Source of the DNA: Verrucomicrobiaceae bacterium
GTDB taxonomy: Bacteria > Verrucomicrobiota > Verrucomicrobiia > Verrucomicrobiales > Verrucomicrobiaceae
Length of the DNA stretch: 64,000 nucleotides
NCBI GenBank assembly: GCA_019694165.1
Contig: JAIBCL010000003.1
Location: 124,001 to 188,000, forward strand
Direction: 5' to 3'
The notes under the pieces were generated by a model. That model worked only from the letters and a program-made list of their open reading frames with translations. It did no database searches and was not told the DNA's origin. The position numbers and the translations under genes are program-made. Shown one piece after another: positions 11,613-38,970 of this stretch; positions within the stretch are counted from its first letter, which is position 1; each line of letters opens with the position of its first letter.

Positions 11613-14300
11613 ATGCCTACCAAGCCCTCCGCCCAGCTTACGCTCCACGACAAGCTCTCGCGTCTGAACATCATCCAGGCAAAGAAACTGCTCGGCCCCG
11701 CAGCGGCTGCGCTTCTGCCAAAGGCCGGTCGCGAGGAGATCGACATCGCTTCGCAGGTGCTCTTCACGGCGGATCAATTCCAGATCGTGTATCCCGTGAA
11801 GCAGTTCGTCGTGACGCTGTCCTTGCATCCGAGCTACCGCGACCGTTTGCAAGTCGTGTGCAGTCATGAGGGCGAGGCGGCGGACTACTATCGGGCTGCG
11901 ACCATTGCTTTGATTCTGGAAGAAAAGCTGGCGCTCGGCCTGTCTGCGCCGCCGAATGAGAACACGCCGTGGGAACTCATTCCCGAGCACGAGCTGGAGA
12001 ACCGCGCCATCGCCGAGCGCATCAAACGCGCTGCCGAGGAAGTGATGAAGATAACCGCAGCGGACAACGCCACGCCGTGGACCGACTACACCGTCACCAG
12101 CGCAACGAGTGGGAAGTCGTATCGCGTCACCCTGCGTGGAATGCAGCGCGGGCAGAGCTTCTGCACCTGCCCGGACTTCCGCAAGAACCGCCTCGGCCTG
12201 TGCAAGCACGTCATCAAAGTGCAGGAGCACGCGAAGAAGAAGTTCGATGCTGCGGCGCTGAAGAAGACGCCGAAGCCAGAGCGCCTCGGCGTCTTCGCGC
12301 GCTACGATGGCGACGTGCGCCTCGCTTTCGAAGTGCCCGCTCGACTCCACGACAACGTGCAGAAGATCATCGCGAAATGGGAGGACAAATTTGCGCAAAC
12401 TGATGCTGAGATCACCGCGCTGTTCGACACGATTCGCAGGCTCTCGCAGGCCGATGCTGACTTCGTTGTTTATCCCGACGCCGAGGAGATCATCAATCAA
12501 GCCGTGCATCGTCGGCACTTGACTGACTTGGTCGCTGAGATTCGCAAAGCGCCCGCGCAGCATCCGTTGCGAAAGGCACTGCTGCACACCGAGCTGCTGC
12601 CGTATCAAATGGACGGCATCGCTTTTGCCGCCGCCGCTGGACGCGCCGTGCTCGCGGACGAGATGGGTTTGGGCAAAACGATCCAGGGTGTCGGCGTCGC
12701 CGAGTTCATGGCGCGCTTCGCGGGTGTGCGGCGCGTGCTCGTGGTGTGTCCTGCTTCGTTGAAAAGCCAGTGGCTGGCGGAGATCCGGCGCTTCTGTGAC
12801 CGCAGCGTGCAAATCGTCGCAGGCAAGACCGCCCAGCGCACCGGGCAGTATGCGACGGGCGCGTTCTTCACCATCGCGAACTACGAGCAAGTGTTGCGCG
12901 ACTACCTCGACATCGAGCGCGCGTCGTGGGACCTCATCATTCTCGATGAAGGCCAGCGCATCAAAAACTGGGAGGCCAAGACGAGCCAGATCATCAAGAC
13001 GTTGCGCAGTCCCTTCGCGCTCGTTTTGACCGGCACACCGCTGGAGAACCGGCTCGATGATCTCTACAGCGTGGTCGAGTTCATCGACGACCGACGCCTC
13101 GGCCCCGCGTATCGATTCGTGCATGGGCATCGCATTGTGGATGATCACGGCAAGGTGCTCGGCTACAAGAACCTCGACGCCCTGCGCGAGCGCCTGCGCC
13201 CCATTTTGCTTCGACGCACGCGACAAAGCATCCAGCTCGATCTCCCGCCACGCAGCACTGAGATCGTGCGCATCCCAGCCACCGACGAGCAGAAGTCGCT
13301 GCACGATTCGCACATGCAAATCGTCGCGCAGATCACCAGCAAGGCATTCATCACCGAGATGGATTTGCTGCGCTTGCAGAAGGCCTTGCTCATGGCGCGC
13401 ATGAGTGCCGACAGCACGCAGCTCGTGGACAAGCAGCCGCCCGGCTTCTCCAGCAAGCTCGACCGCCTCGCTGAATTGCTCGAACAACTCATCGCCGAAC
13501 CGCAGCGGAAGATCATTCTCTTCAGCGAGTGGACCAGCATGCTCAATCTCATCGAGCCGATCTTGAAGAAGCTGAAAGCCAGCTTCGTGCGGCTCGACGG
13601 CCAGGTGCCGCAAAAGCAGCGCCAGCAGCTCGTGCATCGTTTTCAAACCGACGCGCAGTGCCGCTGCTTCCTCACCACGAATGCCGGCAGCACCGGGCTC
13701 AATCTGCAAGCCGCCGACACGGTCATCAATGTCGATCTCCCGTGGAACCCCGCGCTGCTGGAGCAACGCATCGCCCGCGCGCATCGCATGGGCCAGAAGC
13801 GAAAAGTGCAGGTCTATCTGCTCATCACCGAGACCACCATCGAAGAGAATCTGCTCGCCACGCTCAGCGCGAAACACGAGCTCGCCGCCGCCGTGCTCGA
13901 CCCCGACAGCGACTTGCGCGAAGTGCAGCTCCAAAGCGGCATGGACCAATTGAAGCGCCGCCTCGAAGTCCTCCTCGGCGCCAAGCCCGAAGCCGACCGC
14001 GACGTGACGCAGGAGCAAATCGTGCAGCAACAAATCACGACGCTGCAAGCCGAGCAAAAAGCCAAAATCGCCGAAGCCAGCGGCACGCTGCTGACAAGCG
14101 CCTTCAGCCTGCTCACGCAAGCCCTGCCGAACGCAAGCGCACCGGATGAAGCTGTGGTCACGGCGTTGAAGACGAGCCTGAGCCAATGCCTTGAACCCGC
14201 CGAGAACGGACAAACGAGACTGTCGATCACGCTGCCCGGACAGGAAGCCCTGGAAACCATGGCCCGCGCGCTGGCGACGTTGATGGCTGCAGCAAAGTAG
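11613..14300 (+). CDS. SWIM zinc-finger SNF2-family DNA helicase/translocase
   Basis: An 895-residue protein, taking the ATG at 11613 (MPTKPSAQL); an in-frame ATG 39 bases earlier is less likely. A SWIM zinc finger (CxC...CxH) is visible with Cys184, Cys186, Cys197 and His199. The SNF2 ATPase follows: motif I DEMGLGKT with Lys355, motif II DEGQ at 445-448 (Snf2 variant of DEAH), LTGTPLENR motif III, and the C-terminal helicase lobe with GSTGLNLQ and QRIARAHRMGQ (motifs V and VI). Such proteins translocate on double-stranded DNA and remodel protein-DNA complexes; bacterial SWIM-SNF2 proteins are linked to transcription or repair. The C-terminal 100 residues are a helical tail rich in Gln, Ala and Lys. 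It ends at the start of a palindromic repeat patch. Confidence 0.93.
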   Translation: MPTKPSAQLTLHDKLSRLNIIQAKKLLGPAAAALLPKAGREEIDIASQVLFTADQFQIVYPVKQFVVTLSLHPSYRDRLQVVCSHEGEAADYYRAATIALILEEKLALGLSAPPNENTPWELIPEHELENRAIAERIKRAAEEVMKITAADNATPWTDYTVTSATSGKSYRVTLRGMQRGQSFCTCPDFRKNRLGLCKHVIKVQEHAKKKFDAAALKKTPKPERLGVFARYDGDVRLAFEVPARLHDNVQKIIAKWEDKFAQTDAEITALFDTIRRLSQADADFVVYPDAEEIINQAVHRRHLTDLVAEIRKAPAQHPLRKALLHTELLPYQMDGIAFAAAAGRAVLADEMGLGKTIQGVGVAEFMARFAGVRRVLVVCPASLKSQWLAEIRRFCDRSVQIVAGKTAQRTGQYATGAFFTIANYEQVLRDYLDIERASWDLIILDEGQRIKNWEAKTSQIIKTLRSPFALVLTGTPLENRLDDLYSVVEFIDDRRLGPAYRFVHGHRIVDDHGKVLGYKNLDALRERLRPILLRRTRQSIQLDLPPRSTEIVRIPATDEQKSLHDSHMQIVAQITSKAFITEMDLLRLQKALLMARMSADSTQLVDKQPPGFSSKLDRLAELLEQLIAEPQRKIILFSEWTSMLNLIEPILKKLKASFVRLDGQVPQKQRQQLVHRFQTDAQCRCFLTTNAGSTGLNLQAADTVINVDLPWNPALLEQRIARAHRMGQKRKVQVYLLITETTIEENLLATLSAKHELAAAVLDPDSDLREVQLQSGMDQLKRRLEVLLGAKPEADRDVTQEQIVQQQITTLQAEQKAKIAEASGTLLTSAFSLLTQALPNASAPDEAVVTALKTSLSQCLEPAENGQTRLSITLPGQEALETMARALATLMAAAK

Positions 14301-14415
14301 TGCTGCGCTTTAGCGCGCACCAACTCCGCCGGGTCAGGAGACTTCGAGATCACAACACGAGGATCAAGTTTCTCAGACTGCCAGGCTCTCACGCGCTAAA
14401 GCGCATGACTACTTT
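14294..14415. repeat. REP-like inverted repeat pair downstream of the SNF2 gene
   Basis: Two 24-base arms, 14294-14317 and 14392-14415, are reverse complements except for two adjacent mismatches; the 14-base core contains GCGCTTTAGCGC, itself nearly palindromic. The arms are separated by 74 bases and overlap the last codons of the helicase gene. A further partial copy begins at 14439, where a 12-base stretch repeats 14289-14300 exactly and is followed by a related ACTTTAACTCGC core. The arrangement resembles REP/BIME-type extragenic palindromes. No neighbouring RAYT-type transposase is present in the window. Confidence 0.6.
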
Positions 14416-37374: not shown

Positions 37375-38970
37375 ATGACACCCGTCTCCATTTTCAACGA
37401 CGTCATCGGTCCCGTGATGCGCGGCCCGTCCAGTTCACACTGCGCCGCCGCGCTGCGCATTGGACGACTGGCGCGTGATTTGATGGACGGCGAGATTGGC
37501 GAAGTGCTCGTCGAGTTTGACCGCTCGGGCTCGCTGCCAACGACGCACGAGAGTCAGGGCAGCGACATGGGATTGTTTGGCGGGTTGCTCGGTTGGGATG
37601 CCGATGATGAGCGGCTGCCCAACTCCGCGCAGGCTCTCTCCGATGCTGGCATCAAGCTCCGCATCGAAACCGTCGATGTCGGCGATCCGCACCCGAACAC
37701 GTATCGGCTCACGCTGAAGAACACGCGTGAATCGCACACGCTCATCGCCATCTCGAATGGTGGCGGCATGATCGAGGTCATCGAGATCGACGGCGTGCAG
37801 ATGCACATGGACGGCGGGTATCATGAGACGCTGATTTGGGTCCCAAGCCCGGAAAGACAAAAAGATGAGAGACAAAAAAAGGACTCCGAATCTTTTTGTC
37901 TGTCATCTTTTTGTCTTCCTGACTCTAAAACCATCATTCACGACTTGGGCAACCAACAGCTCCTCCAGGTTAAAGCGGCTCAATTTGCCGCCACTGCCGA
38001 TTTAAAACCCATTTCGATCAAAAAGCTCTCTCCCGTCCTCCCCGTCCCTTCCCGCGAAGACATTCGAGTGCCCTTCACGAGCTGCGCAGCCATGCTCGCC
38101 CACGACGGAACCAAAAACACGCCGCTGTGGCAACTCGCCATCGACTACGAGCGTGCTCGCGGCAACTTCATGGAGCGTGAAGTCATCGACAAGATGATCG
38201 AGATCGTCCGCATCCTGCGCAAATCCATCGCCAGCGGCATCGCGGGCACGAGTTACGAGGATCGTGTGCTGCATCATCAGAGCGGACGTTTTGCCGAGAT
38301 GATGAATGCAGGTCGCCTGCTCGATGGCGGCACGCTGAACCGCATCATCCTCTACGTCACCGCTTTGATGGAGGTGAAGAGCAGCATGGGCGTCATCGTC
38401 GCAGCACCAACGGCGGGCGCGTGTGCAGCTTTGCCCGGAGCCGTCATCGCCATGGCCGAGTCGATGCATCAAAGTGAGGAGGATATGGCCAAGGCGATGC
38501 TGGCCGCCGGATTGATCGGCGTGTTCATCGCCACGCGCTGGACTTTTGCGGCGGAAGTCGGTGGCTGCCAGGCCGAAGGCGGAGCCGCGGCGTGCATGGC
38601 TGCTGCCGCGCTTGTCACGCTCGCAGGTGGCACGCGCGATCAGGCCATTGCTGCGTCATCGATGGCCTTCCAGTCCATGCTCGGTCTCATCTGCGATCCC
38701 ATCGCGAACCGCGTCGAAGCGCCGTGCCTCGGCAAGAACGTCATGGCCGCCAGCAACGCACTTTCCTGCGCGAACATGGCCCTCGCCGGCTACGATCCCC
38801 TCATCCCGCTCGATGAAGTTATCGACGCCGCCAAAGCCGTCGCTCACGCCATGCCCCGTGAGCATCGCTGCACCTCGCTTGGAGGTCTTGCGGTGACGCC
38901 CACGTCTTTGAAGATCGAGGAACGTCTCGCGTCGCTGAAGAAGAACTGCGGCTCCTGCGCTTGTCGTTGA
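37375..38970 (+). CDS. sdaA: L-serine dehydratase, iron-sulfur dependent (single-chain)
   Basis: A 531-residue L-serine ammonia-lyase starting at ATG 37375 (MTPVSIFNDVIGPVMRGPSSSH). The N-terminal beta (ACT-like) domain carries the GPSSSH motif and the C-terminal alpha domain carries the [4Fe-4S] ligands in GGCQAEGGAA, LICDPIANRVEAPCLGKN and the C-terminal tail SCACR. It converts L-serine to pyruvate and ammonia in the cytosol. An unusual insert of about 23 residues (near 160-182), rich in Arg, Lys, Asp, Ser, Phe and Cys, is encoded by a long hairpin in the DNA, placed just before the interdomain linker. The gene is divergent from the GH-A glycosidase and stands alone. Confidence 0.94.
   Translation: MTPVSIFNDVIGPVMRGPSSSHCAAALRIGRLARDLMDGEIGEVLVEFDRSGSLPTTHESQGSDMGLFGGLLGWDADDERLPNSAQALSDAGIKLRIETVDVGDPHPNTYRLTLKNTRESHTLIAISNGGGMIEVIEIDGVQMHMDGGYHETLIWVPSPERQKDERQKKDSESFCLSSFCLPDSKTIIHDLGNQQLLQVKAAQFAATADLKPISIKKLSPVLPVPSREDIRVPFTSCAAMLAHDGTKNTPLWQLAIDYERARGNFMEREVIDKMIEIVRILRKSIASGIAGTSYEDRVLHHQSGRFAEMMNAGRLLDGGTLNRIILYVTALMEVKSSMGVIVAAPTAGACAALPGAVIAMAESMHQSEEDMAKAMLAAGLIGVFIATRWTFAAEVGGCQAEGGAAACMAAAALVTLAGGTRDQAIAASSMAFQSMLGLICDPIANRVEAPCLGKNVMAASNALSCANMALAGYDPLIPLDEVIDAAKAVAHAMPREHRCTSLGGLAVTPTSLKIEERLASLKKNCGSCACR
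37851..37919 (+). repeat. Long hairpin mini-repeat inside the serine dehydratase gene
   Basis: Arms 37851-37880 and 37891-37919 are reverse complements with one indel and about two mismatches, separated by a ten-base loop. Each arm is itself two copies of a GACAAAAAGAT-type unit. It is AT-richer than the surrounding gene, keeps the frame, and adds about 23 residues. It resembles dispersed intergenic palindromes. Confidence 0.8.

What the first reader, a model, noticed from the sequence alone, without database searches (positions are those of the whole stretch)
37851..37919. A 69-bp DNA hairpin encoded in frame inside L-serine dehydratase
Two arms of about 29 bases are almost perfectly reverse complementary with a ten-base loop, in a gene for a conserved metabolic enzyme. 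The insert is AT-rich and adds about 23 residues (with two Cys) just before the linker between the beta and alpha domains. The mRNA would carry a strong stem-loop in mid-gene.
Basis: seen in the sequence. Interest (0 to 1): 0.58.

Follow-up and report, generated by a model that had tools for sequence, protein, structure and literature searches.

The report
In-frame mobile hairpin in serine dehydratase
The hairpin inside this enzyme gene looks like a stray copy of a small mobile DNA palindrome found across this bacterial family; it inserted without breaking the gene, and its relatives sit on both sides of an otherwise obscure nuclease gene that may help spread it.

Summary
The hairpin is real (25-nt arms, 96% complementary; z -5.7) and lies in frame in an intact sdaA under purifying selection. 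It is not peculiar to sdaA: it is a solo copy of a dispersed palindrome (model R1 matches in 38 of 68 family genomes). It adds a net 17 residues. 18 of 30 family SdaA, including the same-genus one, have the short form; other hairpins occupy the same site in five more. The same palindrome mostly sits at gene starts, where its purine arm encodes a basic stretch and its pyrimidine arm a hydrophobic one, often within signal peptides of exported enzymes. Unexpectedly, such hairpins flank a 262-aa GxxExxY (PD-(D/E)XK, Cas4-like fold) gene: both ends in 22 of 59 loci against 0 of 265 control ORFs, the same hairpin type at both ends each time, mostly in direct orientation. One cassette has an empty counterpart site in a relative. 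The SdaA hairpin shares 25 identical nt with one cassette's terminal hairpin. Best reading: a REP/RPE-like mobile palindrome with an unusual partner gene; in SdaA a tolerated passenger. That the nuclease moves it is inferred; no coupling was seen outside the family (0 of 24).

The parts
37375..38970 (+). sdaA-like L-serine ammonia-lyase gene (beta part first, alpha part second) that carries the hairpin
   Evidence: Pfam SDH_alpha 1.7e-61, TIGR00718/00719/00720 matches below their curated cut-offs; Ka/Ks low on both sides of the insert
37851..37919 (+). whole hairpin element, in frame, encoding about ERQKDERQKKDSESFCLSSFCL
37854..37878 (+). 5' purine-rich arm, two tandem units (GACAAAAAGATG at 37856, GACAAAAAAAGG at 37871)
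37879..37892 (.). loop
37893..37917 (+). 3' pyrimidine-rich arm; its 25 nt are identical to part of the 3' terminal hairpin of the GxxExxY cassette in L253/L254

Best explanation
The hairpin is a solo copy of a mobile palindrome (about 65-75 bp; two tandem purine-rich units, a loop, and their complement) that entered sdaA in the codons between the last beta-domain strands, in frame and with loss of some local sequence. It stayed because the palindrome has no stop codon in the frame used and because that loop tolerates insertions (other palindromes entered there in relatives). In SdaA it is a passenger: a flexible 20-odd residue loop and a stem in the mRNA. Full-length relatives are cassettes: hairpin, a 262-aa GxxExxY PD-(D/E)XK nuclease gene, hairpin, mostly in direct orientation. 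Solo hairpins may arise by recombination between the two direct copies or by separate mobilisation. Shown: the hairpin, its dispersal, its absence from sister SdaA, the flanking of GxxExxY genes, one filled/empty site pair for a cassette, 25 identical nt shared with a cassette end. Inferred: that the nuclease recognises and moves the hairpin, the direction of events, and the lack of function in SdaA.
For: Dispersal: pattern search 23 of 68 family genomes, model R1 38 of 68, several sites in the own genome. Absent from sister SdaA: 18 of 30 have a 39-aa segment, same-genus G009 among them. Same site used by other hairpins: 5 further SdaA of the 30. Cassette: of 59 long-type GxxExxY loci with both flanks read, 40 have a hairpin on at least one side, 22 on both, all 22 of the same type; controls 7 and 0 of 265 ORFs (Fisher). 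Orientation direct 17, inverted 2, tie 3 of 22. Hairpin and protein divergence correlate, Mantel r 0.56, 0 of 5000 permutations. R1 copy number and number of long-type genes correlate over 68 genomes, Spearman 0.66. Filled versus empty site: G051 (L183) versus G056 (L379). SdaA hairpin versus cassette L253/L254: 25 identical nt, score 39-44 against at most 13.5 for 300 shuffles. Invariant E41, D75, E85, K87 in 30 cassette proteins. SdaA under purifying selection both sides, Ka 0.03-0.12, Ks 0.5-1.5. Insert modelled as low-confidence segment, pLDDT 47-51.
Against: Outside the family none of 24 long-type GxxExxY loci has flanking hairpins, so the gene does not need them. 19 of 59 loci in the family show no hairpin by my cut-offs. 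10 of 32 genomes without a long-type gene still have R1 matches. The own genome holds no cassette of the exact SdaA hairpin type; its two long-type cassettes carry cousin hairpins. Mantel correlation is expected from joint inheritance alone. No target-site duplication was worked out, and at both the SdaA and the cassette site some native sequence is replaced rather than simply interrupted. Loci from near relatives are not independent.
Confidence: 0.72

Rival explanations
1. The palindrome is a REP/MITE-like repeat moved by some other enzyme (a Y1 HUH transposase of the RAYT kind or an IS transposase), and GxxExxY genes are hitch-hikers that became enclosed between two hairpins.
For: REP/RAYT units are known in Verrucomicrobia (Opitutus terrae; PMC3733652, passages and sections read). 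GxxExxY genes outside the family lack hairpins. A GTAG-bordered palindrome pair exists in this very window (14294-14415). Many solo hairpins occur in genomes with no long-type gene.
Against: No GTAG or CGTC tag was seen at the ends of the R1 family (alignment A1). Same hairpin type at both ends in 22 of 22 two-sided loci, with a short, regular distance to start and stop codon, for many different hairpin types, is hard to get by chance enclosure. RAYT-flanking REPs are inverted (PMC2817692 abstract), these are mostly direct.
Confidence: 0.2
2. The hairpin was kept because it does something in sdaA: a translation pause between domains, an RNase III site, or a new protein loop.
For: Strong fold in mid-gene; place near a domain boundary; several lineages carry different hairpins at the same place.
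Against: Most family members lack any insert there (18 of 30); the inserts differ in sequence and length; the insert is predicted as disordered; the same palindrome is scattered over unrelated genes.
Confidence: 0.05
3. The palindrome arose in place by template switching or foldback copying, in the cell or in the assembly.
For: Long near-perfect inverted arms are what such events give.
Against: The same sequence exists at many other places and in many genomes, with 25 nt identical to a cassette end in another species; arms carry differences.
Confidence: 0.02

Closest known systems
Rickettsia palindromic elements (RPE)
   Same: Short palindromic repeats inserted in frame inside conserved protein genes, tolerated in loops (reviewed in PMC2229807 and PMC3733652, passages read).
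   Different: Other phylum, other sequence; here hairpins also enclose a nuclease gene, and most high-scoring copies lie at gene starts rather than inside genes.
REP/REPIN with RAYT (TnpA-REP) units
   Same: Palindromes that flank a nuclease-type gene and occur as many solo copies; hairpin and gene diverge together (PMC2817692 abstract and passages).
   Different: Partner is a PD-(D/E)XK GxxExxY protein, not a Y1 HUH protein; hairpins mostly direct, not inverted; no GTAG tag seen.
GTAG/CGTC-tagged repeats of Opitutus terrae and others
   Same: Verrucomicrobial intragenic palindromes encoding 20-30 residues (PMC3733652, section 15 read).
   Different: Tags not present in this family; arms here are 25-30 nt of two tandem purine-rich units, far longer than the 5-13 bp stems listed there.
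Yersinia YPAL/RU-2 repeat in YPO1552
   Same: A repeat element encodes part of a signal peptide (PMC2759123, passages read).
   Different: There a single case in a 168-bp element; here it recurs in several exported enzyme families and a filled/empty site pair shows the replacement.

Membership tests
REP/RAYT | GTAG (or CGTC) tetranucleotide unpaired at one end of the palindrome | tested here: not met
   Alignment A1 of 12 copies: consensus ends are CGAC...GTCG/GTCT, no GTAG or CGTC tag
[quoted passage not shown]
   Flanked gene is PDDEXK_3/GxxExxY; orientation direct 17, inverted 2, tie 3 of 22. A separate RAYT acting in trans was not looked for
Rickettsia palindromic elements | in-frame insertion of a palindrome in conserved protein genes | tested here: met
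   SdaA here and 7 other internal sites of 115
Rickettsia palindromic elements | sequence of an RPE family | not tested
   RPE sequences were not compared
MITE | terminal inverted repeats with target-site duplication, moved by the transposase of a related IS | tested here: inconclusive
   Empty site compared but about 90 nt differ there, so no duplication could be defined; no IS searched
GxxExxY (TIGR04256 / PF13366) | score above the curated cut-off | tested here: met
   L254 49.2 against 35 and 50.5 against 22 bits; L265 64.2 and L282 71.3 against 35
GxxExxY (TIGR04256 / PF13366) | PD-(D/E)XK active-site residues | tested here: met
   E41, D75, E85, K87 invariant in 30 sequences; N half matches Cas4 SSO0001, Z 9.4, rmsd 3.2 over 97 residues

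The most novel reading that the evidence does not exclude
A new class of bacterial mobile element: a cassette of hairpin, Cas4-like GxxExxY nuclease, hairpin in direct orientation, whose nuclease acts on its own hairpin and seeds solo hairpins into coding sequence. Because a purine/pyrimidine palindrome reads the same on both strands, any insertion yields a basic then a hydrophobic stretch without stops in the frames seen, so the element doubles as a portable signal peptide; SdaA carries a copy in a loop.
Probability: 0.4. Interest if true: 0.85.

Novelty: new variant of a known kind. Interest (0 to 1): 0.62.

Why it matters
It would give the widespread but functionally unassigned GxxExxY family a first genomic role, as partner of mobile palindromes, and provide a second system beside REP/RAYT in which a gene and its palindromes can be studied together. 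It also gives a concrete route by which a repeat element creates or replaces signal peptides, with a filled and an empty site. For sdaA itself it is an ordinary, tolerated insertion.

Tried and rejected
Artefact: rejected because the same palindrome is in dozens of assemblies and the arms differ.

An sdaA-specific function: not supported (18 of 30 family SdaA lack any insert).

REP membership: no GTAG/CGTC tag in A1.

GxxExxY as a defence gene: no PADLOC match at E 0.1 for three proteins.

Internal duplication of GxxExxY: the order of helices and strands repeats in the model, but profile comparison of the two halves gives probability 1.5%, P 0.034, so I do not claim it. The C half alone was not searched against PDB.

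Coupling beyond the family: 0 of 24 loci, a result against a general rule. Short-type PF13366 loci: both-sided same-type hairpins in 6 of 33 read (3 own, 3 relatives; two more gave no ORF), controls 0 of 370.

Signal-peptide claim: my score is a crude rule, not SignalP; 49 of 76 N-terminal sites pass, against 54 of 162 control ORFs, and in only 25 of the 49 does the hydrophobic window overlap the element by 9 nt or more. Nine or so of the 12 seeds of R1 were N-terminal copies, so the 50 of 59 N-terminal count is biased upward; the random-position null is itself 29% N-terminal. Rows dropped before that count: of 230 matches, opposite-strand doubles and repeats of one place in two loci (L128, L154) were removed to give 115.

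Literature: GxxExxY in 2 papers, neither about repeats; PF13366/PDDEXK_3/TIGR04256 in 1 (listing only); Prosthecobacter with palindromic repeats 4, none on point (listing); Verrucomicrobia palindromic in-frame 2. Subscription papers are not held.

Full report
What is there. Window 37851-37919 is a near-perfect hairpin inside sdaA (37375-38970, +). Arms 37854-37878 and 37893-37917 are 96% complementary with 14 nt between; the fold is far more stable than shuffles. The gene is intact, matches SDH_alpha and L-serine ammonia-lyase models, though below their curated cut-offs, and evolves under purifying selection on both sides of the insert (Ka 0.03-0.12, Ks 0.5-1.5 against six relatives). Each arm holds two tandem units of the kind GACAAAAAGATG.

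It is an insert at a tolerant site. The best 80 of 307 relatives of SdaA were fetched and show a variable-length segment at this place. In the own family 42 of 68 genomes have a close SdaA. Of the 30 for which loci were given, 18 have a 39-aa segment there, among them the same-genus genome G009 (L370); the own protein has 56; 11 others have 45 to 54. Six of 30 carry a strong hairpin in this segment against 4 of 206 control windows elsewhere in those loci. They fall in three groups: the own one; L355 with a cousin of the same build; and four with GTGATGCAGACACTC...GAGTGTCTGCATCAC, itself a dispersed repeat (GCAGACAAGAGTGTCTGC, one mismatch, in 25 of 68 genomes, no control match). In a model of the own SdaA (mean pLDDT 76.4) residues 161-180 have pLDDT 47-51 between two strands.

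It is a dispersed repeat. A pattern from the arm, two mismatches allowed, matches in 23 of 68 family genomes. A covariance model R1 from 12 copies matches in 38 of 68 at E 0.01. The own genome has, besides sdaA, sites on contigs C46, C3 and C1 at E 0.01, and weaker ones on C57 and C23. One on C3 lies in the signal-peptide region of a sulfatase gene.

Where copies sit. 115 non-redundant sites were classified with a codon-usage score: 76 N-terminal, 8 internal, 1 C-terminal, 30 none; random positions in the same loci give 29, 49, 14 and 8.5%. Of the 59 sites of 55 bits or more, 50 are N-terminal, 3 internal (SdaA, L135, L177), 6 none; R1 was seeded mostly from N-terminal copies, so this leans high. 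N-terminal products read like M-K-N-R-N-P-F-F-C-L-x-S-F-C-R followed by a hydrophobic run and AxA: the purine arm gives basic residues, the loop often the ATG, the pyrimidine arm hydrophobic residues. Since a palindrome reads the same on both strands, this order does not depend on orientation. Hosts include sulfatase, sulfatase-modifying factor, GSDH, GH43, DPP IV, M20 peptidase and planctomycete cytochrome families. A crude signal-peptide rule passes 49 of 76, against 54 of 162 control ORFs.

The partner gene. Pairs of R1 hairpins about 800 bp apart enclose a 258-266 aa protein that belongs to GxxExxY (TIGR04256, PF13366). The own genome has 7 PF13366 matches in 6 genes; hairpins were seen beside 5 of these, each gene with its own hairpin type. 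Long-type genes above 100 bits number 68 in 36 of 68 family genomes. Among 59 loci with both flanks read (of 62 examined), a hairpin lies within 220 bp upstream in 32, downstream in 30, either in 40, both in 22, and in all 22 the two share sequence; control ORFs: 7 of 265 either, 0 both (Fisher 2e-29 and 1e-18). The loci include near relatives, so the P values are too small. The two hairpins are direct in 17, inverted in 2, tied in 3. Hairpin types differ widely between genes but keep the two-unit arm, and their divergence follows that of the protein (Mantel r 0.56, 0 of 5000). R1 copy number follows the number of long-type genes (Spearman 0.66). Against a general rule: 0 of 24 loci outside the family have hairpins, where 27 of 387 phylum genomes carry the gene.

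Structure. Thirty proteins share E41, D75, E85 and K87. The AF2 model is confident (pLDDT 95.9, pTM 0.88). Its N half matches the Cas4 protein SSO0001 (4ic1; Foldseek E 6e-4; Z 9.4, rmsd 3.2, 97 residues). A nuclease is thus likely; its substrate is unknown.

Filled and empty site. In G051 (L183) a cassette (1538-2508) stands between two genes; in G056 (L379) the same two genes are joined by about 90 nt that hold a native signal peptide for the downstream cytochrome-type gene; in G051 the 3' hairpin encodes the new N-terminus. G031, G041 and G037 share the collinear, filled arrangement. So the cassette is variable and its hairpin replaced a signal peptide.

Link to SdaA. The SdaA hairpin scores highest against the terminal hairpins of the cassette in G031/G051 (39-44, median over 64 hairpins 11, shuffles at most 13.5) with 25 identical nt in the 3' arm. 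The own genome's two long-type cassettes have other hairpin types, so the source cassette is not in this assembly (96% complete).

Mechanism, ranked. Most likely the SdaA copy is a solo hairpin left by, or copied from, such a cassette. Direct orientation of the two ends would allow solo copies by recombination, as with solo LTRs (that comparison is recalled). Whether GxxExxY cuts the hairpin is untested. The REP/RAYT system is the nearest in behaviour (PMC2817692 abstract and passages; PMC8266576 passages), RPEs the nearest in effect (PMC2229807, PMC3733652 passages and sections 15, 17). The idea that a repeat can form part of a signal peptide is in print for one Yersinia gene (PMC2759123 passages). 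I found no paper that links GxxExxY to palindromes (open-access library only).

Noticed in passing
window 14294-14415: Second-listed inverted repeat of the window: two GCGCTTTAGCGC-type palindromes bordered by GTAG and its complement, like a REPIN of the GTAG class.
   Followed up: no
L353, L356, L359, L367 (SdaA genes): A different palindrome (GTGATGCAGACACTC.../...GAGTGTCTGCATCAC) occupies the same SdaA loop in four relatives; its core is dispersed in 25 of 68 family genomes.
   Followed up: partly
L349, L350, L351, L357 (SdaA genes): Four relatives carry an 11-residue extension there with two small palindromes (GCGACTTTAGTCGC, TCGGCTAAAGCCGA).
   Followed up: no
L217, L239, L236, L238 (short-type PF13366 genes): Short GxxExxY genes flanked by hairpins of the CCACGGAAnGCACGGAA type, on one or both sides.
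   Followed up: partly
L094 around 1420-1525: Run of 14-nt units GGCGTCAGAAAGATT in tandem beside one hairpin, as if hairpin units can multiply.
   Followed up: no
L055-L064, L073 (SdaA loci): SdaA relatives of 72-75% identity sit on contigs labelled Trueperaceae and other phyla; transfer or mislabelled bins.
   Followed up: no
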